Part shown: positions 26,097-58,986 of the stretch, piece by piece
Numbering within the stretch: the first letter of the stretch is position 1
How the letters are laid out: each line of letters starts with the position of its first letter
Origin: Deltaproteobacteria bacterium
Lineage (GTDB): Bacteria; Myxococcota; B64-G9
DNA length: 64,000 nucleotides
Assembly (NCBI GenBank): GCA_019314375.1
Contig: JAFCZJ010000015.1
Coordinates: forward strand, 1 to 64,000
Direction: 5' to 3'
Translations under genes and position numbers: made by a program
Notes under the pieces: generated by a model
Seen by the model: the letters and a program-made list of their open reading frames with translations, nothing else
The model's database searches: none
Told to the model about the DNA's origin: nothing

Positions 26097-26972
26097 CTAG
26101 GATTTTGGCAAGACAAAATTCTCAAAGTGATACCACTGGCTGGGATACCGCCGAAGCACGTCTTCCAGATTTCGAGCGTAGGCCTGTGCTGAGCGTTCAA
26201 TGGCGGGCCAGCGGTCCGCCCTGGAGGCGGCTTCAACCCGAAAAGGCTCCATGGCCTCCAATCGATATTTCCGTCGGCCGCATCGCAGCACAAAAAAGAC
26301 ACAAATTTCCGCGCCCGAGGCCAGGGCGAAAAGATGAGGCCCGGCCGGCACAAGGGCCTTGTGCCCTAAAAAATCCACCTCCACCGAGCGCTGGCCTTCA
26401 GCCCAAAGGCGATCCCCGGCAAAAGAAATCAGCCCCCCCTTGCGCAGAAAACTCAGACCTTCCAAGGAATCCAGCGAGCTCCCTCCCTGCTCGCTAGCGA
26501 CAATCAGGGATACGCCACCCTCCCGCAGATCGTCTTTTTGCATCTTTTCGACCTGCTCTCGCTGTCGCTGTCCCATAAACAGCATCAAGGGAATTTTTCG
26601 GCGCTTGAAAATCCGCGCCGCAGCTTCCCAGGCCCCCATGTGGCTCATCAACAAAATGCCCCCAGAGCCCGAATGGGCCAGGCGCTCCACGTGCTCGAAA
26701 CCAATGCGTTCGGTCTCAAAAACGCCACCTCGGCCGAGTCGAATCCTTTCCGCAAAAAGAGACGAAAAATTATGAAACTGCCTCCAGGTCAAGGCCAGCC
26801 TGGACCACCACCCGCGCCCAGGAAAGGCGGCCGCATAGAGGGCCAGACTTGTCCTCACCCGCCCCGGATAAAAAACAAAATACCACGTGGACACAAACCA
26901 GGCGAAGAGGGCCACTATCAAAACACCCAGCCCCCGGGACATAGACAAGAGACGATACAGCCAGCCTATCAT
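26097..26972 (-). CDS. LpxL/HtrB-like lysophospholipid acyltransferase
   Basis: About 291 aa from the ATG of MIGWLYRLL, with GGGAGG 8 nt upstream; it overlaps the preceding stop by 4 nt (ATGA). Membrane-anchored at the N-terminus, with the acyltransferase HX4E motif in LLMSHMGAWE and later FAGDRLWAEGQRSVEVDFLGH. The family transfers acyl chains to lipid A or other lipids at the inner leaflet. In aryl polyene clusters such an enzyme attaches the polyene acyl group to a lipid or sugar acceptor, which fits here. It is the last gene of the 26-34 kb operon. Confidence 0.85.
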   Translation of the reverse strand: MIGWLYRLLSMSRGLGVLIVALFAWFVSTWYFVFYPGRVRTSLALYAAAFPGRGWWSRLALTWRQFHNFSSLFAERIRLGRGGVFETERIGFEHVERLAHSGSGGILLMSHMGAWEAAARIFKRRKIPLMLFMGQRQREQVEKMQKDDLREGGVSLIVASEQGGSSLDSLEGLSFLRKGGLISFAGDRLWAEGQRSVEVDFLGHKALVPAGPHLFALASGAEICVFFVLRCGRRKYRLEAMEPFRVEAASRADRWPAIERSAQAYARNLEDVLRRYPSQWYHFENFVLPKS

Positions 26973-29900: not shown

Positions 29901-30031
29901 GCGGGCAAAGCAGCCAACACATCGCTGTCCACCTGTAAGCGAGAAAAACCCAACCAAAAGGCAGCCGGCACACCAATGAGAACCAGGACAAGGGTCAGCC
30001 AGCGACCGAATTCAAACCCTGGACGTCTCAT
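26969..30031 (-). CDS. MMPL/RND-family exporter fused to a SAM-dependent methyltransferase
   Basis: About 1020 aa from the ATG of MRRPGFEFGRW (a GTG two codons earlier is also possible). The first roughly 790 residues form an RND-type pump: two sets of helices and two large periplasmic loops, with GGALVAITVDHGIAFLRFLDGG and VLGMGVDYALYLVRGQQ as the conserved Gly/Asp helices. Then a class I methyltransferase starts (RLLDIGCGLGVPATWLALA) and runs to the end. MMPL pumps in aryl polyene loci move the product across the inner membrane. The two activities occur as separate proteins elsewhere as far as I know; here methylation may be tied to export. It overlaps the glycosyltransferase by 20 nt. Confidence 0.85.
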   Translation of the reverse strand: MRRPGFEFGRWLTLVLVLIGVPAAFWLGFSRLQVDSDVLAALPAGDLAMESARRVLDAHPALEQVVVDLEVADGSTERLFEAAETCSKRMRESGLFAKVGLNEAAQDFAGFLADLPARLPFMFDEKMLEQDVAPRLDAAFIRGRLLRSLNEMASLDGVGQAELLAADPLGLHELVFQRLASLSPSPGARMRAGHLLSADGKHVLLLAEPKGRGTDTVTARGIESLFVRLKAEIPAEIRLRAMGSWRAALDNERMARSDTERAVWIATIGILLLLLLCFPRPWLGLLALLPAFAGISAAMLVYSLFEDRISALALGFGGALVAITVDHGIAFLRFLDGGEVKSGRDAARRVWSVGLFATLTTVGAFAALTLSGFSILAQVGILAALGVGFAFAFVHLVMPRLLPRPPAGRKTSLLPVESWLGWVGGGRRFWPAMVLVLLVGVGLSVLGPPGMKVDLQGMNSVSPATREAEQALEKTWGQMGRGPSLMLEAESLPALLLAGSRLAPLLEQAVKSEQIEEVLGPWDLAPTGVLAQDRLAAWRKFFSPSRRLALIDKLEGIGLELGFARDAFAPFIARLEPDRAPAFSLPPGVLKALGVVQAEGAWRWFANLRPASSYDGSVLVPVFERAQVAVFEPALFSERLGDLLGRTFESMVLLVALAVVILLVFLFMDLLLVLTTILPLLFAGLASLLGLRLLGHPLDLPSLMLAVVVLGMGVDYALYLVRGQQRFFEPSHPAMGPVRVTVLLAGGSTLIGMLSLLSAEHAVPRSAGVSMALGIGFALLGSFLILPPLLNRLFSPVPFPKQPFALSSADHARALRRRYRRLEPGFRFFARFKLSADPMFPKLAEWLSDGQRLLDIGCGLGVPATWLALARRDLRVVGIEPVADRARVARRVLGERGQVHVAAAPDLSAADGLFDRVMMLDMVHYLDETALAETLAGVVERLKPEGRMILRATLPEEGRFLERGIEALRIRLRGERHHWRSQETLLAALQSAGLRVELVEASAPGRCEWWFVASRGEAAE

Positions 30032-30782
30032 CGTCACGAGCCTTGGGGCTTTGTGGCGGTAACAACAAACGTCGCGCCCTGATGCGGCGAGGCCACAAGA
30101 TGCGTTGGGTGATGAGCCTGGTAAAAGTAGTCGAATTGCGCCAGAAATCCATCCACGGTCGAAAATGGGAAATGCGTTCACCCCTGGGCTGATAGACCAC
30201 ACCCACCTCTTGCTCACGCACGGGCAAGCCCTTCCAGCGGGCCTTGATCAACACCTCCACCTCCCACTGAAATCTCTCGGCCCGTGCATCCAAGCTCAGC
30301 ACCTCGGGCAGGGGATACACACGAAAGCCGCTCTGGCTGTCGCGCACCTTCGGCCCGCCCGCGGCGCTCACCCAGAAGTTGGAAAAACCCCGGCCAAAGC
30401 GACTCGTCCAAGGGGTGTGCTCACCATCCATGCCGCGACGGCATCCGACAACGATGGCACGAGGTTCGTTCGTGGCTTCCTCCATGAGCGCGATGGCGTC
30501 CGCGGGATCATGCTGCCCATCCGCATCCAGGGTCACCGCCCAGCCAGCATGTGAAGCGGCAGCCAAAAAACCGGTCTTCATGGCCGCCCCCTTCCCTCTA
30601 TTTTTCTCATGCCTCAGAAGGGTGATGCCTTCGACCCCCCGTAAAAGTTCGGCGCATTCCTCATCGGAGCCATCATCCACAACGAAAACCCGTTTGTCTT
30701 GGTCGAGGACTCGGGCGAGCAATTCCCGCAGGCCTCGCGGGTGATTGTACACCGGAATCACAAATGCAAAGTCCCGGCCCAA
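30012..30782 (-). CDS. Family 2 glycosyltransferase
   Basis: 256 aa GT-A fold enzyme of the dolichol-phosphate-sugar synthase type: FVIPVYNHP at the start, nucleotide-binding VFVVDDGSDEE, metal-binding TLDADGQHDP, and SQSGFRVYP plus RFQWEVEVLIKARWKG. Cytoplasmic. In aryl polyene clusters a glycosyltransferase is thought to add a sugar to the lipid head; that role is likely here. The basic tail (RRIRARRLLLPPQ) may touch the membrane. It lies 3 nt from the ACP gene. Confidence 0.85.
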   Translation of the reverse strand: MGRDFAFVIPVYNHPRGLRELLARVLDQDKRVFVVDDGSDEECAELLRGVEGITLLRHEKNRGKGAAMKTGFLAAASHAGWAVTLDADGQHDPADAIALMEEATNEPRAIVVGCRRGMDGEHTPWTSRFGRGFSNFWVSAAGGPKVRDSQSGFRVYPLPEVLSLDARAERFQWEVEVLIKARWKGLPVREQEVGVVYQPRGERISHFRPWMDFWRNSTTFTRLITQRILWPRRIRARRLLLPPQSPKARDDETSRV

Positions 30783-30785
30783 AGC

Positions 30786-31070
30786 TCAAGTCCCCTCTTT
30801 TTCAATCGAAGCCTGGCCTTTCAGCTTGGCGTTGACCAGATTCTCCAGATCCCGAAGGCATTCGATGCCCACCAGATCTTCAGTATCCAAAGCGATTCCA
30901 AAATGCTGCTCAAGGGCGGCCAGCGCATCCAGGACATCCACCGAATCCAAGCCCTGTGAGGCCAAGGACGCATCAGGCGACAGATCGCGAAAGGCACCGT
31001 CAAAACGGTCCCGCAACACATCCGTCACCTGCTGCGCCACCGCTCTTCCGTCCGTCTTTTCGCCCATCAT
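30786..31070 (-). CDS. Acyl carrier protein
   Basis: 94 aa, four-helix carrier. The phosphopantetheine Ser is in SQGLDSVDVLDAL (canonical DSx motif), followed by ALEQHFGIALDTEDL. It carries the growing chain as a thioester. The start overlaps the ketosynthase stop (ATGA). It is one of two carrier domains in the window; the other is fused to a ketosynthase. Confidence 0.9.
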   Translation of the reverse strand: MMGEKTDGRAVAQQVTDVLRDRFDGAFRDLSPDASLASQGLDSVDVLDALAALEQHFGIALDTEDLVGIECLRDLENLVNAKLKGQASIEKEGT

Positions 31071-37010: not shown

Positions 37011-37082
37011 CTTTTTCCTCCAAAATTTTAAAAAGCCAGAAACGGCTGTGTTTGCAATACACCCTCGCACCTGAACACCACT

Positions 37083-38612
37083 TCAATTCGCCAAAAAGGA
37101 TCGCCGCTCCAGCAGAAGCTGGGCCAGCTCCTCGATCTCAGCGTCCATCACCCTGTCCGCCACCATGAAGGATGCGTGTTCGCGAATCCGGCGCAGGCAG
37201 TCTGCCAGGGCGGGGCGCTGTTCCAGCCCCCCTCGCAATTCCGCGGCTTGGGCGCCTGCCAGCAGATGCGTGGCCAACAAGCGCGCGCCCATCAGACAAA
37301 GCCGCGAGGCGTCCCGGGCGGCGATGGTGCCCAAAGACACAGTGTCCTGGTTGTGGGATTCGGTGGAGCGGGAAAAGACCGCGGCCGGCATGCAGTCCTT
37401 GGCCATCTCAACGGCCAAAGATGAAGTCAAAATCTGAATGGCCTTGAAGCCATGATGCAAGTTTCCCGCCTCTTCCGGCACCAGGTCCGCGGGCAGGCCC
37501 CTGGAAAAACGAACATCGATCAGCAGGGCGAACTGCCGGTCGGCAAGATCCGCCACGCGAGCCAAGGCGGCCTTCAGGCCGTCCATGGCAAAGGCCACAT
37601 GCCCGCCGAAAAAATTACCGGCCGTCCAAACCGCCCCCGACTCAGGATCAAACAAGGGATTGTCGTTGGCGCTGTTGGCCTCACATTCAATCCAGGGCCG
37701 CATCCAATCCAGCGCATCGGCCAGCACGCCGAGCACCTGAGGCGTACAGCGCAGAGAGTACGGATCCTGCAACCACTGTGGCTCTTGGCTTTCTTCCACC
37801 GGGCCCGTGGCGGTCAGAAGTTCCCGCAAGCGGGCCGCCACCCGAGCCTGTCCCGGAAAGGGCTTGGCCTCAAACACGCCTTTTTCGAAGTGGTGTGCAT
37901 GACCCGCCAGGGCATGAACACACAGGGCCGCGCCGCAAGAAGCAGCCTCCAGCAATCGCTCGGCCCTGACGCAAGCCACAGCGGCGATGCCGGTCATCAC
38001 GCTGGTGCCGTTCATCACCGCCAGGACTTCCTTGGGTTGAAACTCGTATGGCTTGAGCTCTGCTGCCTCCAGGGCCTCGGCCGAGGCCATGCGCCGGCCC
38101 TGATAGAAAGCCTCTCGCTCGCCCATCATCACCGCCACCAGATAATTCAACGGCGTCAAATCACCCGAGGCCCCCACGGAACCCTGACTGGGAATCAGGG
38201 GGGTCACGCCGGCATTAAGCATGTCCACCAAAGCCTGCAAAAGCTCCAAGCCCACGCCGGAGTATCCGCGAGCAAGAGACAGAAGCCGACAAACCATGGC
38301 CGCCCGCACCTCGATCTCCGGCAAGGGCTCGCCCACCCCGCAGCCATGAAAGCGCGTCATGTTGCGGGTCATCTCCAGGGTCGATTCCGCTTCAATGCGC
38401 TTGCCGCAGGCCCGACCAAAACCGGTCGTCACGCCATAAATCGCGGCACCACTGTCCATGGCCGTCTGCAAGGCCTTCCGCGAAGCTTCCATCCGCTCAA
38501 CAAAGGCCACATCCCGACTCAAACGCAAGCGAGCCCGACCTTCGGCCAGGGCCACAATGTCGTCCACGCTCAGCTCGGTTCCACCCAACTTAAGTTCAAT
38601 CAAATCACCCAT
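37083..38612 (-). CDS. Aromatic amino acid ammonia-lyase (HAL/PAL/TAL family)
   Basis: 509 aa from the ATG of MGDLIELKL (GGAGG 10 nt upstream). The MIO cofactor triad Ala-Ser-Gly is in GSVGASGDLTPLNYL (residues 148-150), with the catalytic Tyr in IYGVTTGFG and the downstream NANDNPLF-like ANSANDNPLF. The enzyme removes ammonia from an aromatic amino acid without a cofactor. The selectivity loop reads MTRFHGCGVG, not the LSHAAG of typical histidine lyases, so phenylalanine or tyrosine giving cinnamate or coumarate is a reasonable reading. Within this cluster it would supply the aryl starter. It is flanked by two large surface lipoprotein genes. Confidence 0.9.
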   Translation of the reverse strand: MGDLIELKLGGTELSVDDIVALAEGRARLRLSRDVAFVERMEASRKALQTAMDSGAAIYGVTTGFGRACGKRIEAESTLEMTRNMTRFHGCGVGEPLPEIEVRAAMVCRLLSLARGYSGVGLELLQALVDMLNAGVTPLIPSQGSVGASGDLTPLNYLVAVMMGEREAFYQGRRMASAEALEAAELKPYEFQPKEVLAVMNGTSVMTGIAAVACVRAERLLEAASCGAALCVHALAGHAHHFEKGVFEAKPFPGQARVAARLRELLTATGPVEESQEPQWLQDPYSLRCTPQVLGVLADALDWMRPWIECEANSANDNPLFDPESGAVWTAGNFFGGHVAFAMDGLKAALARVADLADRQFALLIDVRFSRGLPADLVPEEAGNLHHGFKAIQILTSSLAVEMAKDCMPAAVFSRSTESHNQDTVSLGTIAARDASRLCLMGARLLATHLLAGAQAAELRGGLEQRPALADCLRRIREHASFMVADRVMDAEIEELAQLLLERRSFLAN

Positions 38613-38721
38613 CACCAACAAGCCTCCACCGCGGCCAAAACACACCGCATCAAGGGAGTCATCCTGTCCCCAAGACAGCAAATAGTCAAGCAAAGACCGG
38701 CACCTGACTCCCTTCACCCAC

Positions 38722-38755
38722 AAAAAAACCGGGGCGGCCCAAAGGCCACCCCGGT
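38722..38755 (-). terminator. Rho-independent terminator after the 1298-aa lipoprotein gene
   Basis: Read on the minus strand: ACCGGGGTGGCC, loop TTTG, GGCCGCCCCGGT, then seven T's. A 12-bp stem with one G-U wobble. It lies 26 nt past the lipoprotein stop and before the ammonia-lyase gene, so the lyase probably has its own promoter in 38613-38721. Confidence 0.85.
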
Positions 38756-42832: not shown

Positions 42833-44311
42833 TCAGTTTGGCCTGCGCGCCACGGCCAACAACACCATGCCCTGACCCAGGATATCGGGCAGTCCAAAGT
42901 CCTCCAATCGCTGGGTTTTTAGGCCCGCCGATTTCAAAACACGAGACCAGTGCCGCTTCGGTCTTGCCGACAACCACAGCCCTTGCCGCATGGCGTTGCC
43001 GATCTGGACAAAAAAGCGCCAGCAAGAGGGATGGGCCGAAGTCAGAATCAAATGCCCACCAGGGCGCAGAAGGGAGGCCGCCCGAGTCAATGCGCTTTCT
43101 AAGTCCGTCACGTACTCGAGGACCGAGCACGCCAAGACCAAATCAAACCCAGGATCGACACCCAGGTCCTCCACCCCGCCAACTTGAACGGTGAGGCCCT
43201 CGAGATCGGCAGCCTTCGCCTTGCGCTCAAGCTGCGCCAGCATGGCCGGCGAAAGGTCGATCGCCAGAACCTTGTGGCCTTGCCGCAACAGGCTCAAAGC
43301 AAAGCGACCCGTGCCAGCGCCCCAGTCCAGAACCCGCGCCGCCGGAGCCAGCCCCAATCCTTCCACGGCATCCAAAACTCGCGCCTCTTCTGCTTGTCGA
43401 AGCCGACCCTGCCCGGAAGATTCCAGTTCTCTGTCGTAGCCTTGCGCCATGCCGTCGTAGAAACCCACGATCGGGTCACGCTTCGAATCCGAAGCCCAGG
43501 AGGCCGAAAACCCCAGAAACGCATCAGGAGAAGCCGTCGTGATTTTCCGCCCAGCCAGCCCATTCAGAAGCGCCTCCACCTCGGACAACCAGCTTTGCAG
43601 CGAGGCCCTGGGGGGGACGCAATCATGCAGAGCCAAAATCTGCCCCGGACGCACCTTGCGCAGCAAGCGCTCTGCCAGACCGTTCAGGCGTCGATTACCC
43701 CAGTCCAGGGCCCGACAAGAAGCCACCATGCACACCATGCCCCGACGCAACAAAACCGGCCAAAGCCGCGGCCCCACCACCCAGGCCGGTGGACGAAACA
43801 AACGAGGCGCAAAGCCCTGGGCTTCGAGTACTTCTTGCGTTTTGTCGATGGAAACGGCGAGGCTTTGCGGACTGCGAAACATCAGCCAGGGATCATGATC
43901 CCAACTGTGGTTGCCCAAAGCGTGACCTGCATCCACCATCGCCCGAATCAGCGCCGGGTACGCTTGAGCCTTTTTCCCCACCACAAAAAACAAGGCCTTG
44001 GCCTGGTGTTCTTCTAAAAGACGCAGCAAAGCCGGGGTGCTTTCGGGATCCGGCCCATCATCAAAACTCAACAACACCCCGCGCTCGACATTTCCCTTGG
44101 ATATGACGGGCGAAAACAAACGCCACCGAGGAAAAAAGGGGGCCACGCCGAGCACAAGCAACAAACAAAACAGCGGCATCAAAGACCACAGAGGATCGAC
44201 AAAAGCCAAACCGAAGGCGACCTGAAAACAAGCCAAACCAATGAAGTGAATGGGGGCCAGGGGGAAAATCCGGGCCGAGCCTCCCCATTCTATCGGGCCA
44301 ACAGTTCCCAC
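42833..44311 (-). CDS. Polysaccharide deacetylase fused to a SAM-dependent methyltransferase
   Basis: About 492 aa from a GTG at 44311 that overlaps the upstream gene by 22 nt; the ORF-track start is deep inside that gene. The N-terminus has two membrane helices (FIGLACFQVAFGLAF, LMPLFCLLLVLGV). The NodB deacetylase follows: VLLSFDDGPDPES (metal Asp), GNHSWDHDP (two metal His), FRPPAWVVGP and LALHDCVP. The methyltransferase occupies the last 200 residues (ARVLDWGAGTGRFALSLL, LACSVLEYVTD). A deacetylase acts on N-acetyl sugars, so the pair may tailor the glycan part of a glycolipid and methylate it. This is inference. Confidence 0.8.
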   Translation of the reverse strand: MGTVGPIEWGGSARIFPLAPIHFIGLACFQVAFGLAFVDPLWSLMPLFCLLLVLGVAPFFPRWRLFSPVISKGNVERGVLLSFDDGPDPESTPALLRLLEEHQAKALFFVVGKKAQAYPALIRAMVDAGHALGNHSWDHDPWLMFRSPQSLAVSIDKTQEVLEAQGFAPRLFRPPAWVVGPRLWPVLLRRGMVCMVASCRALDWGNRRLNGLAERLLRKVRPGQILALHDCVPPRASLQSWLSEVEALLNGLAGRKITTASPDAFLGFSASWASDSKRDPIVGFYDGMAQGYDRELESSGQGRLRQAEEARVLDAVEGLGLAPAARVLDWGAGTGRFALSLLRQGHKVLAIDLSPAMLAQLERKAKAADLEGLTVQVGGVEDLGVDPGFDLVLACSVLEYVTDLESALTRAASLLRPGGHLILTSAHPSCWRFFVQIGNAMRQGLWLSARPKRHWSRVLKSAGLKTQRLEDFGLPDILGQGMVLLAVARRPN

Positions 44312-45639
44312 AAGGGGCCAACCCTTCCCCGGGAGTGAAGCCGCTTGATGAGCCTGGCCGCCTGCGGTCCACCCGATCCCAAAACCCAGTTGGGCCGGCC
44401 CGCGGCCGCCTCGGCCACCCTGGACATGACGGCATCCGGCTCCATGCCGGGCGCGCGGAAAAACCATGGCTTGATAAGGTTGTCGCCGGCGTCTATCAAG
44501 CCCTCGGCAAGCGCTTGGTCAAACAAGCGGGTATGGGGATAGACCCGCACCCCGCAAAAATAGATCAACACCGCGCCATCCAGATGCTCGGCCCGCGCCA
44601 GGGCTTGTTCCATGCTGGCTTCTGTTTCGCCCGGTCCCCCGAGCACCAAATAATGCGCCACATGCAGGCCCGCCGCCTTGGCTGCCTTGTGGGCGGCCAA
44701 AACGTCCTCATACGAAAAACGCTTGCCGTAGGATTTCATGGTCACATCGGCCAGGGCATCGGTGCCGAATTCGACATGCGTACAACCCGCTGCCGCCAGG
44801 CGGGCGTATGTATCCGGCTTGGGACGTAAGGGCGCAAAAAATGCACCCCAAGGCAGGCGCAGGCCCGCCTCATGCATGGCTTCAGCCACCGCCAAACCAT
44901 GCTCTTCATCCACGTTAAAAACCGCATCCGCCAAAAAGAGGTATTTGGCCCCGGCCTCTTGCAAGGCCATCGCCCAGGTCGCCACCTGCTTCGCTTCGAT
45001 GGCACGCAAGCGGTGACCCTCAATCCGGGGATACGTGCAATAGCTACAGTTGAAGGGGCAGCCTCGCTGGGTTTGCAGATTAAACATGCCCCCATGCGGC
45101 AGGTACGGCGCAAGACTGATGTAACGGCCGGGCTTTGTGCGCCGTGGTTTGCCCTGCCAGGGCTCCGGCATACGAGCCGTTTCGCCGGGCATGACCACAC
45201 CGTCCAGACCTGCTATTTTCTCACCCCGCTTCATGGCGTGCAGCACGGACCCAAGGCGCTCGCCTTCCCCAACCAGACCCCAATCCGCGCCGGTGGCCTC
45301 AATCAAGGCTTCCGGGAAAATCGTAAATCCGCTTCCGCCCAAAACCACTTGAGCCGCCGAATGCTGTCGAACGCATCGCACCACTTCGCAAAGATCGGGA
45401 ATGAAGTCCTTGCTGTCACTGAAGTCCTGGTTGTCCACGTTGCGCACCGAGATGCCCACCAACTCAGGCTGGAACTCAGCCAAGCCCGCTATCAGGGTGT
45501 CGTTGTCTTCTTGTGCACAAAGATCCACCACCCGCAGTTCGTGTTCATCCTCCAGGTGGCCGGCCACATGGTCCAGGCCCAAGGGGTAGACCGGATAGGG
45601 TTCCGTGATGCGATTGGCCGCCACCAGCAATATTTTCAT
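44290..45639 (-). CDS. B12-binding-type radical SAM protein
   Basis: About 449 aa from the ATG of MKILLVAANR (GAGAGGG upstream). The N-terminal Rossmann-like cobalamin-binding-type domain (PYPVYPLGLDHVAGHL ... VVLGGSGFTIFPEA) shows no DxHxxG His ligand, as in many members. The radical SAM core has the 4Fe-4S cluster motif RGCPFNCSYCTYPRIEG (CxxxCxxC). Such enzymes methylate or rearrange unactivated carbons. It starts 1 nt inside the ACP-KS-CLF stop (TGATG). It is likely to modify the lipid or polyene chain; the substrate is unknown. Confidence 0.85.
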   Translation of the reverse strand: MKILLVAANRITEPYPVYPLGLDHVAGHLEDEHELRVVDLCAQEDNDTLIAGLAEFQPELVGISVRNVDNQDFSDSKDFIPDLCEVVRCVRQHSAAQVVLGGSGFTIFPEALIEATGADWGLVGEGERLGSVLHAMKRGEKIAGLDGVVMPGETARMPEPWQGKPRRTKPGRYISLAPYLPHGGMFNLQTQRGCPFNCSYCTYPRIEGHRLRAIEAKQVATWAMALQEAGAKYLFLADAVFNVDEEHGLAVAEAMHEAGLRLPWGAFFAPLRPKPDTYARLAAAGCTHVEFGTDALADVTMKSYGKRFSYEDVLAAHKAAKAAGLHVAHYLVLGGPGETEASMEQALARAEHLDGAVLIYFCGVRVYPHTRLFDQALAEGLIDAGDNLIKPWFFRAPGMEPDAVMSRVAEAAAGRPNWVLGSGGPQAARLIKRLHSRGRVGPLWELLAR

Positions 45640-48029
45640 CAAACCCTCTCTTCGTCGCACAGGCCTTCGATGGCCACCGCGGCCACATGGGCACCCAGGG
45701 TCAAGTGTAGAACACCTCGCCCCTCCAGCGCCACGGGCCCCGCCGAACTGGGACTTTGGTCCATGCCCAGACAAGCCACCGCCAGGGCGCATGCAGCAGC
45801 CGAGGCCGATCCAAACTCGCCCAAGCACTTCCGTGTCTCAAATCGCGGCAGGTCGTCGGCCAAGACCGCAAGCTGTTGCTGCGCCAGGCCTCGTTCCGCC
45901 GCGGGAATGTTCAGCCACAGGGCGCCAAACCGAGACCAGGGCAGGGCGGAGAACAAAGCCTCCCAGGCCTCGCCCTCCACCAGGCCCAGCAGTTCGATGG
46001 ATGCCCTGGCACCCTCCATTTCGGGCTGTAGGATCATCCCGCCACCGCCATCGGCCAAGGCACCCTCTCGCTCGGCCACGGATGCGTCCAGCCTGGACGA
46101 CAGGATTTCATGTCCTTCGTCAAAGCCCATTAGCCAGGCCCGCGTTTCGCCCACATCGGGCATCAACAGACCGGCTGCATACAGGGCCTGCTCGAAAGAC
46201 ACATCTCCTCCGGTCATGGTCACGTTGGCACCCCGCGCACCGGCGCGAAGGGCCAACATCCCGGCTGGCGCGTTGTGCACCGAGCCCACGAAATCCGTGG
46301 GGCTGGACAGGCGCTCCGGGTTATCGAACAAGCGCTTGAGAAAATCATGGGTCTCGCCCTGGGCACCCCAGGCCGTGCCCACGAATATCTGCCCCGGCCC
46401 GAGCTCACCATCGACCGCGGTCAAGCGCTGACCCAGCCCCATGGCCAGTCGGCCGATGCGCTTGACGCGGCGCAGGGCTCGCTTCGGCATGCCCTCAAGC
46501 AGGGCTTCGCCAACATAGCAACCGGCGCAGTCTTCGCCGGCCAGCATCCGTCGAAGACTTTCTTCTTCAAAACCCGCCCCGGTTAAAGCAGTGGCATGCC
46601 TCACAAACAGTCGAGGCAAGCCCGCTTTGCGCTCTGGGGGAGTCCCGAGGGGTGTATCCATCTTGCCCCAGATCAAAGAGGCGTTGTTGCCGCCAAAACC
46701 GAAGGAGTTGCTCATCACCTGCGAGAGGTCCATGGTCTTTGACGCCAGGAGGGGGGCCAGTCCCAGCGCGGGATCCACTGTAATGAGCCCCGCGTTGGCC
46801 GGTGCCTGTTGTCGCAGCAAGGCGTCAATGGCGATCACCGACTCCAAGGCCCCGGCAGCGGCCAAAGGATGCCCGGTCACCCCCTTGGTCGAAGAGACCG
46901 CCGGTGGATGTTGGGCGAACATCCGCAGAAAGGCCCGCGCTTCGGCCCGATCGTTGTCCGGCGTGCCCGTACCGTGCATGTTTACGTAGTCCACCTGTTC
47001 GGGCCGCAATCCCGCGTCATCAAGCGCCGCCTGCATGGCACTCAGGGCACCGTCCCCCTCCGGATGCGGCGCGGTGGCATGGTAGGCGTCGCAGGACAAG
47101 CCGGCGCCCGCCAACTTGGCCAGGGTCCTCGATGGAATCTCAGCCCCGGCATCCATCGCCTCCAAAAAGAGCATGGCTCCGGCTTCGGATACGGTCATGC
47201 CTGCCCTGTTTTCGTCCAAGGGCCTTGCTCCCTCGGCATCCACCAATTGGAGCATGTCAAAACCAAAATGCGTCATCCGACAAAGGCCGTCCGCGCCACC
47301 GGCCAAAACCTGGTTTGCCAGGCCTCGACGCAGCATTTCCAGAGCCAGCTTGATGGCCACGGCCGCCGAAGAACAAGCGGTGGATACGGTCAACACGGGC
47401 CCCTGGCAACGACTCGCTCGCGCGAGGGTCCAGGCAACCCCGCCGGTCGCGTGATCATTCAGCAGACCCGGATCAGAGATCAAGGCTTCTTCGTTTCGGG
47501 GCATGCCGCCCGTGCTCACACCGAGCACAATGGCGTCAGGCGGGACCTCCGCATGCTGCAGGGCTTGCCGCGCCGCGCTCAGGGCCAGTGCGTGGGTTCG
47601 AGACAATTCGTCTGCTTGCAGCCAAGCAGAGTAGCCCAGGGGTTTGGACCCACGCTTTCCAGCGGCGAACTGTGGCAATCTAGAAAAACAACCCCGGCCT
47701 TCGGCAAGTGCCTGACGCAAGGACGCGAGGTCCGGTCCGGTCGGACCGGCCACCCCCAGCCCGGTGACATAAACCGCCCGGGGCACCGACTCGATATACT
47801 CGGCCAGGCTGGCGAGAGACATCATGACCTTTTGACCGAGCTCTTTGTTGTCGATTTTGACGCCGTATTCCTGCTCGATCATGACCACAAGCTCAAGCAC
47901 GTCGATTGAGTCCAATCCCAGGCCCTCGCCGAACAGGGATTCATCGTCTTTGATTTGTTCCGGATCCACATCGGGCAGATCCAAAGTCTCGACCAGCTTG
48001 TGTTTGAGTTCCTGAATCAGGTCGCTCAT
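45639..48029 (-). CDS. Fused ACP - ketosynthase - chain-length-factor protein
   Basis: 796 aa. Residues 1-80: carrier domain, phosphopantetheine Ser41 in GLGLDSIDVLEL. Residues about 82-455: ketosynthase with Cys220 (TVSTACSSAA), His353 (VNMHGTGTPDND), Lys383 and His388 (STKGVTGHPLAAAG) and SNSFGFGGNNASL. Residues 470-796: a second thiolase-fold half in which the nucleophile position reads MTGGDVSFEQAL, with no Cys, as in chain-length factors of aryl polyene synthases. Elsewhere KS and CLF are partner proteins with separate ACPs, so one chain holds a complete elongation unit. It overlaps the upstream radical SAM gene by 4 nt. Confidence 0.9.
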   Translation of the reverse strand: MSDLIQELKHKLVETLDLPDVDPEQIKDDESLFGEGLGLDSIDVLELVVMIEQEYGVKIDNKELGQKVMMSLASLAEYIESVPRAVYVTGLGVAGPTGPDLASLRQALAEGRGCFSRLPQFAAGKRGSKPLGYSAWLQADELSRTHALALSAARQALQHAEVPPDAIVLGVSTGGMPRNEEALISDPGLLNDHATGGVAWTLARASRCQGPVLTVSTACSSAAVAIKLALEMLRRGLANQVLAGGADGLCRMTHFGFDMLQLVDAEGARPLDENRAGMTVSEAGAMLFLEAMDAGAEIPSRTLAKLAGAGLSCDAYHATAPHPEGDGALSAMQAALDDAGLRPEQVDYVNMHGTGTPDNDRAEARAFLRMFAQHPPAVSSTKGVTGHPLAAAGALESVIAIDALLRQQAPANAGLITVDPALGLAPLLASKTMDLSQVMSNSFGFGGNNASLIWGKMDTPLGTPPERKAGLPRLFVRHATALTGAGFEEESLRRMLAGEDCAGCYVGEALLEGMPKRALRRVKRIGRLAMGLGQRLTAVDGELGPGQIFVGTAWGAQGETHDFLKRLFDNPERLSSPTDFVGSVHNAPAGMLALRAGARGANVTMTGGDVSFEQALYAAGLLMPDVGETRAWLMGFDEGHEILSSRLDASVAEREGALADGGGGMILQPEMEGARASIELLGLVEGEAWEALFSALPWSRFGALWLNIPAAERGLAQQQLAVLADDLPRFETRKCLGEFGSASAAACALAVACLGMDQSPSSAGPVALEGRGVLHLTLGAHVAAVAIEGLCDEERV

Positions 48030-49258
48030 GAGTGTGTACCTTGGCTTTCGCCTCGGCGCTTCCGGCCGGGCATGCTGCGCAATAGTTGCAGAAACAGTTT
48101 GCTCATCTTCAGCTCTTGGGACTCATCCCGATAGAAGTCACCCCAGGCCTGATCGAAGAGACGCTGCAGAGTGTCCACGCTCATCTGCTTGGGTTCATAC
48201 ACCACGTGACCCGCGTTGTAGTGCCGCCAGTCCCGATCGAAAATACGCCCCTCCCGCTCCAGGTGGTTGTATGCCTCGGTGTGGGGAAAAGGCGTCAGTA
48301 TTGTGAACTCGGCAAGATCCAGTTCCACGGTCAGAAGAAAATCGATGAAGCGCTTGGTGAAATCTTCCGTGTGATCATCAAGGCCCAAAAGGATGGTACC
48401 CTCCACGCCGATGCCGTGGTCATGATACATCTTGATGCGATCTTTGATCTTGTCCGAAATGTTGTAAACCGCATGGTAGACGTACCAACAACCCGCCTCC
48501 CGAGCCAGCTTGAGCACCTCCGAATCACAGGAGATCGGGTGGGAGACCCAATGCTTGCCGTGGCCGGCCAGACGGCGAAACAACTCCTTTTGGTACTCGA
48601 CGTTTTGCTCCAAGGAGTTGTCCACAATAAACATCAGGTCCGAACAGGAATCCACGTCGGCCAGCACTGATTCGATGGGCTTGATGCGATGCTGCCGACC
48701 GCCCAGGTAGGGCGTACAGCAGGGATAGCAATTGAAACGACAGCCCCGGCTGGTTTCCACGAGGTCCACCAGCTCCCAGTCCTTGTGGCTGTAATATTTC
48801 TTCTTGTCGTAAAGCTCGCGCCGAGGACGCGGCACTTGGGCGATATCCGGAAAACCCTCGCGTCGGTAAACCGGTTTCATCTGTCCAGTTTGAAAGTCGG
48901 CCAAGGCTTGCTCGATCAAGCCCTCGGCTTCGCCCACCACGATGCTGTCGGCGTGCTCTGCTGCCTCTTCCGGGCAAAGGCCCACATGCAGGCCCCCGAT
49001 CAAGACTTTCTTGCCGCGCGCCCGGAAGGCATGGGCCAACTCGTATGCACGAGGCGCCTGACAGGTCAGCATGATGGATAGACCCAAGACATCACAGTCC
49101 GAGTCCATGTCCACGGGCTGAACATTTTCGTCGCAGACTTCGACTTGCCAGCTCTCGTCAACGCAAGCCGCCGCCTGGATGGGTCCCAGGGGAGGTAGGT
49201 CGAAACGCGTTTGTCCAGGCAACTTGGGCCAAGATGGATAGATAATAAGCAGCTTCAT
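48026..49258 (-). CDS. B12-binding-type radical SAM protein with DUF4070-like C-terminus
   Basis: 410 aa. Cobalamin-binding-type N-terminal domain (DLPPLGPIQAAACVDE ... VLIGGLHVGLCPEEAAEHAD). Radical SAM cluster SRGCRFNCYPCCTPYLGG (CxxxCxxC). C-terminal TPFPHTEAYNHLEREGRIFDRDWRHYNAGHVVYEP fits the DUF4070 tail of HpnJ/HpnP-like and related lipid-modifying enzymes. The neighbourhood suggests action on the polyketide or lipid. First gene of the 42-49 kb minus operon, divergent from the dehydratase operon. Confidence 0.85.
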   Translation of the reverse strand: MKLLIIYPSWPKLPGQTRFDLPPLGPIQAAACVDESWQVEVCDENVQPVDMDSDCDVLGLSIMLTCQAPRAYELAHAFRARGKKVLIGGLHVGLCPEEAAEHADSIVVGEAEGLIEQALADFQTGQMKPVYRREGFPDIAQVPRPRRELYDKKKYYSHKDWELVDLVETSRGCRFNCYPCCTPYLGGRQHRIKPIESVLADVDSCSDLMFIVDNSLEQNVEYQKELFRRLAGHGKHWVSHPISCDSEVLKLAREAGCWYVYHAVYNISDKIKDRIKMYHDHGIGVEGTILLGLDDHTEDFTKRFIDFLLTVELDLAEFTILTPFPHTEAYNHLEREGRIFDRDWRHYNAGHVVYEPKQMSVDTLQRLFDQAWGDFYRDESQELKMSKLFLQLLRSMPGRKRRGESQGTHS

Positions 49259-49288
49259 GCGGTTTTCCTACCAGCCCACTCCAAATGA

Positions 49289-49300
49289 GTCAAGCTTGAC
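49289..49300. promoter_or_regulatory. Divergent promoter region with 12-bp palindrome
   Basis: In the 73-nt gap between the divergent operons (49259-49331) lies GTCAAGCTTGAC, a perfect palindrome. It contains back-to-back TTGAC hexamers: TTGACA on the plus strand at 49296-49301 and TTGACT on the minus strand. A minus-strand TAGGAA follows after 17 nt; no good plus-strand -10 is seen. Overlapping -35 boxes would make the two operons compete or be co-controlled. Confidence 0.45.
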
Positions 49301-49331
49301 ACCTGTGGATCCATTGGAAGAAACTAGCAGC

Positions 49332-49787
49332 ATGTTGGCAGACACGGACATCATCGAGACTTGTATCCCCCATCGCAAGCCCATGCGCCTGGTGGAGCGC
49401 CTGCTAACCAGTCAAGACGACCAGGCCACGGTGGAGAGCTTTGTCCGTCCTTATTGGCCAGGTGCCGCGGGGGGCTTTGCCGATCCCGTCCTGCTTATCG
49501 AGGTGGTGGCCCAGTCCGTCGCGGTTCTGGTTGGATGGCAACGCCGGCATGAAGAAAAAATGGGCGGTCGCGGCCTGCTGGTCGGCGTACGCAAGACCAA
49601 AATTCAATGTGATCAGCTTCGGGTGGGCGACAGGCTTCAAAGCCATGTAGAATTGCTATACAAAGTGGAAAACTACGCTGTTTACCAAGGCCAAGTGCTG
49701 GATGATGAAGGTCGTCTTTTGGCACAGGTGGAGCTACAGTCATACCGCCCGGATGACTTTCCTGGCGCCATTGAGGAAAATCCATGA
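49332..49787 (+). CDS. Hotdog-fold 3-hydroxyacyl-ACP dehydratase (ApeP/FabZ-like)
   Basis: 151 aa from the ATG of MLADTDIIETC; the ORF-track ATG overlaps the divergent gene's start. Hotdog dehydratase pattern: PHRKPMRLVERL with the catalytic His, and LLIEVVAQSVAVLVGW with the Glu on the long helix. The family removes water from 3-hydroxyacyl-ACP to form trans double bonds, as needed in every polyene cycle. ATGA overlap with the reductase gene couples their translation. A second dehydratase of another fold is fused to the PPTase at 57490. Confidence 0.85.
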   Translation: MLADTDIIETCIPHRKPMRLVERLLTSQDDQATVESFVRPYWPGAAGGFADPVLLIEVVAQSVAVLVGWQRRHEEKMGGRGLLVGVRKTKIQCDQLRVGDRLQSHVELLYKVENYAVYQGQVLDDEGRLLAQVELQSYRPDDFPGAIEENP

Positions 49788-50542
49788 ATGACAACAACAT
49801 GAACGACAACAGAAAGAGCTCTGCATTGATCACCGGCGGCGGGCGAGGCATCGGACGAGCCCTTTGCCTCGAGTTGGCCCAAGCAGGGCACCATGTGATC
49901 ATCAACTACTTAAGTCGGCAAGAAGATGCGGAAAAAACCCTTGAGCGGGTCCTGGCCGAAGGAGGCACCGGAGAAATCCTGGCCCTCGACGTCAGAGACG
50001 AGTCGGCCTGGAAAACCGCCATCGATGAACTCAGCCAGCGAGAAGAGGAAATCGGAGCCATCGAGATCCTCGTCAACAACGCCGGCGTCACCGATGACGG
50101 ACTCTTCCCCATGATGAAAGCGGAAGCCTGGAAGCGTGTCACCCGCACCAGCCTTGATGGTTTTTACAACGTCACCCGGCCGGTACTTAAGCGCATGATG
50201 CGAAAGCGACGAGGTTCAATCGTCACCATGGCCTCTGTTTCGGGCCTGGTGGCGAATCGGGGTCAGGTGAACTACTCGGCCGCCAAGGCCGGCCTCATCG
50301 GGGCAACCCGCTCTTTGGCCGCCGAGGTGGCCAGGCTCGGCATCCGGGTCAACGCCGTGGCCCCTGGACTGATCGAGACGGAGATGACGGCCGAGGTACC
50401 CAAGGAAATGATCAAACAACTCATCCCCTTGAACCGCTTCGGCAAGCCGGAAGAGGTGGCCAAAGTCGTGGCTTTTCTTTGCTCGGACGCAGCCTCTTAT
50501 GTCACGGGCCAAATCATCGGGGTCAACGGAGGCATGGCATGA
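49784..50542 (+). CDS. 3-oxoacyl-ACP reductase (FabG-like SDR)
   Basis: 252 aa short-chain dehydrogenase. NAD(P) loop ITGGGRGIGRALC, structural LVNNAGVTDDG, catalytic Ser in MASVSGLV and YSAAKAG (Tyr, Lys), and VNAVAPGLIETEM. Reduces the beta-keto group made by the ketosynthases. The start overlaps the dehydratase by 4 nt and the stop overlaps the LolA-like gene by 4 nt. Confidence 0.9.
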   Translation: MNDNNMNDNRKSSALITGGGRGIGRALCLELAQAGHHVIINYLSRQEDAEKTLERVLAEGGTGEILALDVRDESAWKTAIDELSQREEEIGAIEILVNNAGVTDDGLFPMMKAEAWKRVTRTSLDGFYNVTRPVLKRMMRKRRGSIVTMASVSGLVANRGQVNYSAAKAGLIGATRSLAAEVARLGIRVNAVAPGLIETEMTAEVPKEMIKQLIPLNRFGKPEEVAKVVAFLCSDAASYVTGQIIGVNGGMA

Positions 50543-51174
50543 AAGACGCTCGCGCCTTGTTGGCGATTCTGCTGCTTTTCCTGCTGGCCGCTCCATCAGC
50601 CCAGGCGCAGTCCAACAAAGACTGGCGCGGAGACTTCCAATCTCTGCGCAAGGCCGGTGCCGCCCTCAAGTCGATCCAGGCGGACTTCACCCAGGAAAAA
50701 CAGCTTGCCATCCTGGCCAATCCACTCTTGTCCCAGGGGCGCCTCCTCTACCAGGCCCCCGACGCCCTGCGCTGGGAATACATAAAGCCCATGCCCAGTC
50801 TTCTGCTCCTCCATGGCAAAAAAGCCAGTCGTTTCAATCGAAAAGACGGTCGTTGGGTGCCCGACGCAGCCGAGCGGATCCAAGCGATGCGGCTGGTCCT
50901 TGAAGAAATCCGGCTTTGGCTTTCCGGTCGATACGAAGACAGCGGCGTTTTTACGACCGAGCTTGTAACCGAGCCCAGTCCAAGACTTCGCCTGACACCC
51001 AAATCGCCGGAGATGGCCAAGATAATCCAGGGTATTGTTCTTCATCTGGCCGAAAAACCGGGCCAACTGGAAAAAGTCGAAATCATTGAAGGCCCCAAGT
51101 CTAAAACCATCTTGACTTTTCACAACATCCAGACGGACAAACCCATAGAAAAGGGTTTGTTTTCAAAACCTTAA
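50539..51174 (+). CDS. LolA-like outer-membrane lipid carrier protein
   Basis: About 211 aa from the ATG of MKDARALLAIL, coupled to the reductase by ATGA. Signal peptide ending near APSAQA. LolA-type half barrel: LKSIQADFTQEKQLAILANPLLSQGRLLYQAPDALRWEY, with TILTFHNIQTDKPIEKGLF at the end. LolA-like proteins in aryl polyene clusters shuttle the lipid-linked product through the periplasm. This one is distinct from a housekeeping LolA because it sits in the operon. Confidence 0.85.
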   Translation: MKDARALLAILLLFLLAAPSAQAQSNKDWRGDFQSLRKAGAALKSIQADFTQEKQLAILANPLLSQGRLLYQAPDALRWEYIKPMPSLLLLHGKKASRFNRKDGRWVPDAAERIQAMRLVLEEIRLWLSGRYEDSGVFTTELVTEPSPRLRLTPKSPEMAKIIQGIVLHLAEKPGQLEKVEIIEGPKSKTILTFHNIQTDKPIEKGLFSKP

Positions 51175-53083: not shown

Positions 53084-53255
53084 GGCACCGAATGCTTGAT
53101 CCACATCGCCAAGCACAGATTTCCGAAAGTTGCCTCAATGGTGACGAAGAATAGAGCCGATGCAAGGAGGAGCTATCGATTTGGCCATGCTCCTTCGATC
53201 TAATTGTTTTGCTTGGCCTGATGGGTCATATTGCTTGCAATCTGGGAGGCCCAGC

Positions 53256-56527: not shown

Positions 56528-57514
56528 CTATTTCCGTCTCATCACCCAGCGATCTCCACCGCGACCGATCTGCAGATCTTCATCCAAAGAGTCGATCAAA
56601 AAAGCGGGAGCCGGGAGATCCCATTGGACTCCCTCGAAAACCCAGGGGAAAACCTGCTCCGGCGCCCCTGGACCGTGAACGACCACGCAGTCCTGGCCCG
56701 CATCCTCCTCACCCACTTCGATCCATAGCTGCAAGGGTTTTTGGATTCTGGCCACCTGCTCCTCCAGCCGCCGCCACAGCAAAAAGAGGCAGATCAAGCT
56801 GCCCTGACGTAAGCGCTCTGATCGATTCCCCAGCCCTTGCTTGTCCACCGGTACGCGCAACATGTGCAAGTTGGCGTCGTCGGCCAAGCGATAGTTCGAA
56901 ACGAAATCCCGCTGCCGCTCAAGGTAATGGGTTTCGTCCTGCCCCATCAATGGATTCAAATACGCATGAACCTGCATCGCCCAGAATGCCCCTGGACGCA
57001 AGGCGCTGGGATCCATGACGCGAATTTTCCGCTCCAGCTCCCCGACTCGCTCCGGCGGCACACAGTCAAGATGCTCACAAGCCAAGTGCATTTCCTGGCA
57101 GGCCAAACAGCAACAAGCCATTGCCTGAATGCCGGCATTGACCCAAATGGGCTCGAAATCACGCCCCGGATCAAGGGCCACAACCGCAGGCTCAGTCTCC
57201 GGCAAACAGATGGGCCTCTCTTCGGAATCAATTCCCAAAACCCGACGCTTCGCCAGTGATTTCGGCACCTTGCGATCTTCAAGCCAGGACCATGAGCCCA
57301 GCTCCGGCAGCCAGCGCCCATCGAAATCGCCGAAAACCAAAAATGGAGGCGCAAAACGCGGCAATCCCTGCTCCGTAAGCCAAGCACGCTCAGCGTCCTC
57401 GATCGCCAAACCCTGAAGCGCCCCAGGCGGCATGCGCTGCAGCTCCAGCCCCAACTCACCAGCACGGCGCCGGTAGGCCTCGCCCGTCATCAATTCGTTA
57501 ATTTCAGCACACAT
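56528..57514 (-). CDS. SUKH-4/SMI1-KNR4-like domain protein
   Basis: 328 aa from the ATG of MCAEINELM (GGGGAG upstream). The first half matches the SUKH layout: FLVFGDFDGRWLPEL, AKRRVLGIDSEERPICLPET, EPAVVALDPGRDFEPIWVNAGIQAMACC. SUKH proteins are often immunity proteins against contact-dependent or polymorphic toxins, but some are housekeeping. The second half (residues about 170-328) is unassigned. It is the last gene of the 56-64 kb minus block, overlapping the PPTase gene by 25 nt, an odd place for an immunity protein. Confidence 0.5.
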   Translation of the reverse strand: MCAEINELMTGEAYRRRAGELGLELQRMPPGALQGLAIEDAERAWLTEQGLPRFAPPFLVFGDFDGRWLPELGSWSWLEDRKVPKSLAKRRVLGIDSEERPICLPETEPAVVALDPGRDFEPIWVNAGIQAMACCCLACQEMHLACEHLDCVPPERVGELERKIRVMDPSALRPGAFWAMQVHAYLNPLMGQDETHYLERQRDFVSNYRLADDANLHMLRVPVDKQGLGNRSERLRQGSLICLFLLWRRLEEQVARIQKPLQLWIEVGEEDAGQDCVVVHGPGAPEQVFPWVFEGVQWDLPAPAFLIDSLDEDLQIGRGGDRWVMRRK

Positions 57515-58986
57515 AAAGTACTCCCCTCGAACTCGATACAGGGTGCCCTCACCTCGCGTCCGTCCAGGCGAAGATCCACCCCTTCCGGGTCCGTCCCCAC
57601 AATACGCGCCCGACCAAACACCGCGGCCAGGCTGTCTAAATCCAGGGCCTTGGCCGCAGCCTCCTTGGCACACCAGGCGCGCAACCAAGCGCCATCGCCA
57701 TCTTGAGCCGAGGCATCCAACAAGGCTCGCTCTTCTTCGTCCAGCCAGAGTCGAGCCGTTCGTTTCGCCGACTCGGCCTTTCGCTCAATGTCCACGCCCA
57801 CCGGTCCATCGGCGCCAACAGCCACCGCAAACCGGTCGTCGTGAGCCGCCGCGACATGCTGAAACCCCGGACAGGCGGGCCGAAGGCCATCACCCGCCAC
57901 GGTTTCCAGTCTACTCGCTCGACCCCGCACTCCATGGGCACGCGCCAGCGCCTTCAGGGCCAAACGAGCCCCGACAAAGCTGCGGCTCCGCTTGCTGCCC
58001 ATCGAGGTCAAGCGACTTCGCTCTGAATCGGTCAAGGCCAGATTCTCCGCATAAGGGGCCACGGCATCCAAAGGCAAAACCACGGCCCGCAGGTCGGCGG
58101 CCCGAAAAAAACGATCAAGTTTTTCCTGTCCATGCCTGCCCTTCCGCACCCACTCAGGAACCGACACCTTGCCCGAAAAGAGATCCTGCATCATCAATGC
58201 GGAAACAATCTCGCAGGTTCGACCCAAATCGTCCAACAAGCACAAATCAAAACAGTGGCCTTCGGCCCCCTGCCCCTTGGGCCAAATACGACAAAATACC
58301 GTCTGACCCGGAGCGATGGGCCTGAACACCCGACGCCCGGCAAAACCCACGGGAAAAGTCAGCACACCGTGCACGTGCTGCACCCAAACACAGGCCAAAT
58401 GAAAGGCCGCATCCAGGGCAAAAGGCGAGCCCAATGGCTCCGTGGGCGCGGAAAAATCGGGAACCCGGATGGCGGAAAAAGCCCCCGCCGGAGACAGGTG
58501 AATCTCAGCTGTCAGATTGTGGAAAGCAGGCCCAAAGGGAACCAGGTCGGCGTACGCACGCGCCGCATCCAGGTGCAAACCGACTCCCGGCAGGCCGCAG
58601 GCATCCAAGCCGTCGAAATCCTTTTCCTCGCCCAGCGCTCCCGGCATCTCCCCAAACTGGACTCGCATGTGCTCCATCATGCGAGAAAGGCCGCTGCGAC
58701 CCGCGGGCCTGCGACTCATCAACCTGGCCACACAGCCCTCCGCCCGATCTTCCAGCTCTATCTGGACATGCGCCGGCTGCGCGGTGGACAAAAAGCGTAG
58801 AAATTTGGCATGGCTACAGACACTTGTGTCCACACCTGGAGAGGCGCCCAGGCAGGCCGCCGCCAAAACCTGCAGGGCCTCGGTTGCGGGCAACACGCAT
58901 TGCGCGCCTCCGCCCAGGTCGGGCAAACGATGGTCTGCCAGGTATGCTGGCCTGTCGATCTCCAGCTCCTGGCGAGTAGGGGTCAT
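57490..58986 (-). CDS. Polyketide-type dehydratase domain fused to 4'-phosphopantetheinyl transferase
   Basis: 498 aa. Residues about 1-275: double-hotdog PKS dehydratase with candidate His19 (YLADHRLPDLGGGAQCVLPA, a variant of HxxxGxxxxP) and Asp192 (FALDAAFHLACVWV), plus FGPAFHNLTAEIHL. Residues about 300-498: Sfp-type PPTase with GVDIERKAES (397-401 Mg site) and WCAKEAAAKALDL (438-446). The PPTase would activate the two carrier domains; the dehydratase would act on 3-hydroxyacyl chains. I do not know of this pairing in aryl polyene loci. No ribosome site is clear upstream. Confidence 0.85.
   Translation of the reverse strand: MTPTRQELEIDRPAYLADHRLPDLGGGAQCVLPATEALQVLAAACLGASPGVDTSVCSHAKFLRFLSTAQPAHVQIELEDRAEGCVARLMSRRPAGRSGLSRMMEHMRVQFGEMPGALGEEKDFDGLDACGLPGVGLHLDAARAYADLVPFGPAFHNLTAEIHLSPAGAFSAIRVPDFSAPTEPLGSPFALDAAFHLACVWVQHVHGVLTFPVGFAGRRVFRPIAPGQTVFCRIWPKGQGAEGHCFDLCLLDDLGRTCEIVSALMMQDLFSGKVSVPEWVRKGRHGQEKLDRFFRAADLRAVVLPLDAVAPYAENLALTDSERSRLTSMGSKRSRSFVGARLALKALARAHGVRGRASRLETVAGDGLRPACPGFQHVAAAHDDRFAVAVGADGPVGVDIERKAESAKRTARLWLDEEERALLDASAQDGDGAWLRAWCAKEAAAKALDLDSLAAVFGRARIVGTDPEGVDLRLDGREVRAPCIEFEGSTLCVLKLTN

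What the first reader, a model, noticed from the sequence alone, without database searches (positions are those of the whole stretch)
45639..48029. ACP, ketosynthase and chain-length factor in one polypeptide
Aryl polyene synthases use a KS:CLF heterodimer and separate ACPs. Here a carrier (Ser41), an intact KS (Cys220/His353/Lys383/His388) and a CLF lacking the nucleophile are joined in 796 aa. That fixes stoichiometry and could allow chain elongation on a covalently attached carrier.
Basis: partly seen in the sequence, partly recalled or inferred. Interest (0 to 1): 0.75.

Follow-up and report, generated by a model that had tools for sequence, protein, structure and literature searches.

The report
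One-off carrier–ketosynthase–CLF fusion protein
The gene really encodes an acyl carrier, a ketosynthase and a chain-length factor in one protein of an aryl-polyene-type pigment pathway, but the ketosynthase–CLF part is a common fusion found in dozens of bacteria, and only the added carrier, apparently joined by one short deletion, is unique to this single genome.

Summary
The CLF third is real: its profile finds ApeC and the ishigamide CLF, and the AlphaFold model (pTM 0.91) best matches the PfaC KS–CLF didomain. The cluster is aryl-polyene-like.

The interpretation shrinks. KS–CLF in one chain occurs in 49 other fetched loci from several phyla and was gained or lost repeatedly. Only the ACP join is special. 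In five same-family relatives the ACP is a separate gene whose stop overlaps the KS–CLF start (GTGA/TTGA). The window lacks 20–38 nt there, which removes the ACP stop and puts both genes in one frame. Searches of about 1,270 genomes gave no second ACP–KS frame without a stop. The linker is about 4 residues, a free second ACP lies in the cluster, and the KS's old GTG start remains in frame, so elongation in cis is possible but unsupported. It rests on one draft assembly, though not on a simple one-base error. New variant of a known kind, modest interest.

The parts
45639..48029 (-). ACP-KS-CLF fusion gene, 796 aa
   Evidence: one open frame with ACP, KS and CLF domains in order
47790..48029 (-). 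ACP domain, residues 1-80, phosphopantetheine site Ser41 (47907-47909)
   Evidence: Pfam PP-binding, NCBIfam NF006617 at cut-off; Ser41 checked
47778..47789 (-). link of about 4 residues (81-84, SVPR), holding the former KS-CLF start codon GTG (47784-47786, residue 82)
   Evidence: model: helix 62-80, strand 85-95; GTG lines up with the KS-CLF start of relatives
46662..47780 (-). ketosynthase domain, residues 84-456, Cys219/His352/Lys382/His387
   Evidence: Pfam, NCBIfam, conserved residues, PDB relatives
45642..46604 (-). chain-length factor domain, residues 476-796, Asp609 at the Cys position
   Evidence: profile match to ApeC and ishigamide CLF; model matches PfaC KS-CLF
48026..49258 (-). 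B12-binding radical SAM gene directly upstream; its stop overlaps the ACP start (ATGA)
   Evidence: Pfam; overlap read
44290..45636 (-). B12-binding radical SAM gene directly downstream (listed ORF is longer; start placed by eye)
   Evidence: Pfam; same neighbour in relatives
30786..31070 (-). second, stand-alone ACP (GLDSVDVL)
   Evidence: ORF list; weak ACP-profile match, 24 bits
31067..32299 (-). separate KS, over the NF006587 cut-off; ApeR-like by inference
49257..49787 (+). ApeP-like dehydratase
   Evidence: PF22817
49784..50542 (+). FabG-like ketoreductase
   Evidence: Pfam
50479..51174 (+). LolA-like protein
   Evidence: PF03548
54783..56102 (+). AMP-ligase for an aryl acid, closest to 4-coumarate ligase model, below cut-off
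37083..38723 (-). aromatic amino acid ammonia-lyase, likely source of the starter
   Evidence: PF00221; below HAL and FlxA cut-offs
57490..58986 (-). dehydratase fused to phosphopantetheinyl transferase
   Evidence: PF14765 + PF01648
59089..59568 (-). 4HBT thioesterase, ApeK-like by inference
26097..30782 (-). LpxL-like acyltransferase, MMPL exporter + methyltransferase, GT2 glycosyltransferase
   Evidence: Pfam; same order in relatives

Best explanation
It is the elongation unit of an aryl-polyene-type (ApeO-ApeC-like) type II system. KS and CLF were already one polypeptide in the ancestor of this clade. In this genome a net loss of 20-23 nt (against the four closest spacings) at the overlap of the ACP gene and the KS-CLF gene removed the ACP tail and stop and welded the ACP to the front (shown by comparison). 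KS and CLF fold on each other as a PfaC-like pseudodimer (supported by the model). Cys219 takes the aryl or polyenyl chain and condenses it with malonyl-ACP, the CLF half limits chain length, and FabG and the dehydratases turn each round into a double bond (inferred from the families). The fused ACP keeps its Ser and family sequence and is probably still loaded; most likely it serves as a carrier much as the free ACPs of relatives do, with a fixed 1:1:1 ratio rather than a new chemistry (inferred).
For: Domains and residues; CLF profile and fold; KS-CLF fused in 49 other loci and in all five same-family relatives; separate overlapping ACP gene in those five; junction spacing 27 nt here against 47-65 nt there, changing the frame; conserved gene neighbourhood; APE gene set (PMC8253772); ACP 71-74% identical to two free relatives.
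Against: Only one genome has the fusion, and it is a draft of 370 contigs with 5.8% contamination. No expression data. The ACP part of the model is of low confidence, having no alignment depth. The KS is below the NF006618 cut-off.
Confidence: 0.75

Rival explanations
1. One reading: a purpose-built single-chain elongase in which the chain grows on the covalently attached ACP in cis.
For: ACP Ser41 and KS active site are both intact in one chain.
Against: Link of only about 4 residues; free second ACP in the cluster; no second case in about 1,270 genomes although in many the two genes lie in one frame with one or two stops.
Confidence: 0.15
2. Assembly artefact: the true genome has separate ACP and KS-CLF genes as its relatives do, and bases were lost at the junction.
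For: Single draft genome; all five same-family relatives have separate genes.
Against: A loss of 20 or more bases is not a usual short-read error; neither other frame at the junction gives a normal ACP end, so one wrong base is not enough (read); both flanks are otherwise intact.
Confidence: 0.12
3. The cell still makes a free KS-CLF by starting at the in-frame GTG (47786), so the ACP-bearing form is a minor product and carriers come from the free ACP.
For: The GTG lines up with the KS-CLF start of relatives; a second ACP exists.
Against: No Shine-Dalgarno-like motif is evident before the GTG; relatives probably start there by coupling to the ACP stop, which is gone here.
Confidence: 0.15
4. 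Part of a PUFA-synthase-like (Pfa) system rather than an aryl-polyene system.
For: Best whole-chain fold match is the PfaC KS-CLF didomain.
Against: No DH domains behind the CLF, no tandem ACPs or PfaA/PfaD-like genes among those annotated here; KS and ACP are closest to NF006618/NF006617 and the neighbours are the APE set.
Confidence: 0.03

Closest known systems
ApeO-ApeC KS:CLF heterodimer with ACPs ApeE/ApeF of aryl polyene clusters (PDB 6QSP, 7F28; PMC8358021, PMC8253772)
   Same: KS with Cys-His-His, CLF without the Cys, adjacent ACP, same accessory genes
   Different: Three proteins there, one chain here; ApeC is about half a KS (204-239 aa chains), the CLF here is about 320 aa
PfaC KS-CLF didomain of PUFA synthases (PDB 6RIW; PMC3098273)
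   Same: KS and CLF in one chain, best fold match of the whole model
   Different: PfaC goes on into DH domains and its ACPs sit in PfaA; here an ACP precedes the KS and there is no DH
Unstudied KS-CLF fusions of APE-like clusters (L010-L014, L029-L044 and others fetched here)
   Same: Same KS-CLF chain (40-50% identity in the nearest clade), ACP gene just upstream
   Different: ACP is a separate gene, with at least one stop or a frame change before the KS
Flexirubin cluster of Chitinophaga pinensis (PMC3992019)
   Same: Aromatic ammonia-lyase and coumarate-type ligase start an aryl polyene
   Different: Lyase here is far below the FlxA cut-off (314 of 700 bits); several radical SAM genes are added
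Ishigamide KS/CLF (PDB 6KXD)
   Same: Polyene-making KS/CLF; CLF found by the profile
   Different: Two separate chains, ACP separate

Membership tests
Aryl polyene (APE) biosynthesis cluster | KS plus CLF without the nucleophile | tested here: met
Aryl polyene (APE) biosynthesis cluster | ACP with conserved Ser and family match | tested here: met
   Ser41; NF006617 70.3 bits against cut-off 70
Aryl polyene (APE) biosynthesis cluster | KS over the cut-off of the APE-type KS model NF006618 | tested here: not met
   288.9 bits against 407, although it is the best-scoring model; that NF006618 is the ApeO model is from memory
Aryl polyene (APE) biosynthesis cluster | ketoreductase, ApeP/ApeI dehydratase, ligase, thioesterase, LolA, exporter, acyl/glycosyltransferases nearby | tested here: met
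   compared with the table of PMC8253772; a DUF3261 match for 51183-51833 was not found
Aryl polyene (APE) biosynthesis cluster | product is an aryl polyene | not testable with these tools
   needs expression and chemistry
KS-CLF pair | second thiolase-type half lacks the active Cys and pairs with an active KS | tested here: met
   Asp609; single-chain model matches PfaC KS-CLF; pairing inferred from the model
PfaC / PUFA synthase | KS-CLF in one chain | tested here: met
PfaC / PUFA synthase | DH domains behind the CLF and tandem ACPs | tested here: not met
   chain ends after the CLF; one ACP
ACP-KS-CLF as a conserved family | same three-domain chain in other genomes | tested here: not met
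   no second case in about 1,270 genomes and 80 named loci
Cis-acting carrier (type I-like) | chain elongated on the attached ACP | not testable with these tools
   needs in vitro complementation

The most novel reading that the evidence does not exclude
A natural single-chain minimal aryl-polyene elongase: the polyene is built in cis on an ACP held by a 4-residue link to its own KS-CLF pseudodimer, a step from type II towards iterative type I organisation made by one short deletion.
Probability: 0.15. Interest if true: 0.5.

Novelty: new variant of a known kind. Interest (0 to 1): 0.3.

Why it matters
It shows a simple route from type II towards type I synthases: overlapping carrier and synthase genes can be joined by one short deletion. 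If the protein works it would be a ready-made polyene elongase with fixed ACP:KS:CLF ratio for structural work. The wider point is that the KS and CLF of aryl-polyene-like clusters have been fused or split repeatedly in unrelated bacteria while the ACP stays free, which suggests that KS:CLF pairing gains from fusion and the ACP does not. I found no paper on this in the library searched.

Tried and rejected
A joint alignment with separate ACP rows (A2) misplaced the KS N-termini and was not used for the model. The PDB search of the CLF third with one sequence was weak and was replaced by the profile. Literature searches for 'fused KS-CLF' and for ApeO/ApeC with 'fused' gave no paper that reports such a fusion. 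The celluxanthene arylpolyene cluster was checked; it is a type I system, not this. A simple one-base frameshift was considered and rejected because no close stop exists in the other frames.

Full report
What is there. The gene runs on the minus strand, 48029 to 45639, 796 aa (the finding gave no strand). Pfam gives an ACP (20-79), a KS (84-413) and a Ketoacyl-synt_2 match (514-636) in that order. The ACP reaches the cut-off of NCBIfam NF006617 (70.3 against 70); the KS is closest to NF006618 but below its cut-off. Ser41 is right; the KS residues are Cys219, His352, Lys382 and His387, one lower than stated, and are invariant in 32 aligned proteins. Where the KS has Cys the last third has Asp609, and relatives have D, H, A or E (position assigned by eye).

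The last third is a CLF. A single-sequence search only just found A. baumannii ApeC (7F28_A) and X. doucetiae ApeC (6QSP_B). A 25-row profile found them at 1.2e-10 and 6.6e-13, and the ishigamide CLF (6KXD_B) at 5.7e-14. AlphaFold with 32 rows gave pTM 0.91, with most of KS-CLF above pLDDT 90. The best PDB match of the whole chain is 6RIW, the PfaC KS-CLF didomain, E 7e-42, TM-score 0.72 by query length. So one chain most likely folds as the KS:CLF pair that is a heterodimer in ApeO-ApeC (PMC8358021).

The setting is an APE-like cluster: ApeP-like dehydratase, FabG, AMP-ligase, 4HBT thioesterase, LolA, MMPL exporter, LpxL-like acyltransferase, GT2, PPTase and a further KS over the NF006587 cut-off, close to the E. 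coli gene table (PMC8253772). An aromatic ammonia-lyase suggests a cinnamate-type starter as in flexirubins (PMC3992019), but it does not reach the FlxA cut-off. A second, free ACP lies at 30786-31070.

What is common and what is unique. Five genomes of the same family have KS-CLF as one protein of 721-784 aa and the ACP as its own small ORF just upstream. Among all fetched loci, 49 besides the window have KS and CLF in one frame. In a tree of 97 KS rows, 49 are fused (window included) and 39 have a neighbouring separate CLF; the tree needs 11 changes of state and well-supported branches force at least 6. The fusions come from Desulfobacterota, Spirochaetota, Bacteroidota, Verrucomicrobiota and one Bacillota contig. 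In no fetched locus except the window is the ACP in the same open frame as the KS.

Searches of about 1,270 genomes (195 of the own phylum, 395 Desulfobacterota, 393 Bacteroidales, 289 Verrucomicrobiota) gave 79 genomes with a strong match, the window's included, and no other match that spans ACP and KS without a stop. In Bacteroidales the two genes share the frame with one or two stops between them in every match listed. These searches used strict E-value limits and samples of the groups, so a more distant case could have been missed; matches that begin at the KS could in principle hide a very diverged ACP upstream.

How the fusion arose. In the five relatives the ACP stop TGA overlaps the KS-CLF start as GTGA or TTGA. 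From the conserved ACP Ile/Val codon to the KS Thr codon of the VTG/ITG motif I count 50, 65, 50, 47 and 50 nt between (L010, L011, L012, L013, L014), all 2 mod 3. In the window it is 27 nt, 0 mod 3. So 20-38 nt are missing net, which cuts off the ACP tail and stop and leaves the old GTG start as in-frame codon 82. Neither other frame at the junction meets a stop soon (read: one stays open into the KS beyond the stretch examined, the other runs about 39 codons), so one wrong base would not hide a normal ACP end. The link is about 4 residues by the model (helix 62-80, strand 85-95). No Shine-Dalgarno-like motif is evident before the GTG in the window or before the KS-CLF start of the relatives, which suggests translational coupling in the relatives.

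How it most likely works. Shown: domains, residues, gene setting and the comparison at the junction; supported by a model: the fold. Inferred: KS-CLF elongates an aryl starter with malonyl-ACP, FabG and dehydratases act each round, and the CLF half sets length. The fused ACP is probably still loaded, since it keeps its Ser and 71-74% identity to two free relatives. Whether it feeds its own KS is open; the short link, the free ACP and the lack of a second case make cis elongation the less likely reading. The ACP part of the model has no alignment depth, so it says nothing on placement.

Verdict. KS-CLF in one chain is a known arrangement (PfaC, PMC3098273) and a recurrent one in APE-like clusters. 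I rate it a new variant of a known kind, interest 0.3.

Noticed in passing
44293-45636, 48029-49258, 53160-54770, 62136-63131, 63150-63995: Several radical SAM genes in one APE-like cluster: three with a B12-binding domain and two shorter neighbours (the last, 63150-63995, assigned by similarity to the former only). Possible methylation of the polyene; not examined.
   Followed up: partly
57490-58986, 26969-30217, 42833-44467: Three other fused genes in the cluster: dehydratase + PPTase, MMPL exporter + methyltransferase, polysaccharide deacetylase + methyltransferase; relatives carry matching genes in the same order.
   Followed up: partly
L046, L048, L049, L050 and 41 Bacteroidales genomes: ACP and KS share one reading frame with one or two stops, mostly TAA, between them, yet the stop is kept in every match seen, which suggests selection for a free ACP.
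   Followed up: partly
L010-L108 (tree): KS-CLF fusion or splitting changed at least 6 times in APE-like clusters of several phyla; I found no paper on it.
   Followed up: partly
L072:1498-3340: KS and CLF lie in different frames in a draft genome nested among fused relatives: a frameshift in the assembly or a recent split.
   Followed up: no
32296-34029: Dak2-DegV fusion (fatty acid kinase-like) inside the cluster, also present in the relative G001.
   Followed up: no
34068-37070 and 38781-42677: Two large, similar, cysteine-rich secreted-looking proteins inside the cluster; role unknown.
   Followed up: no
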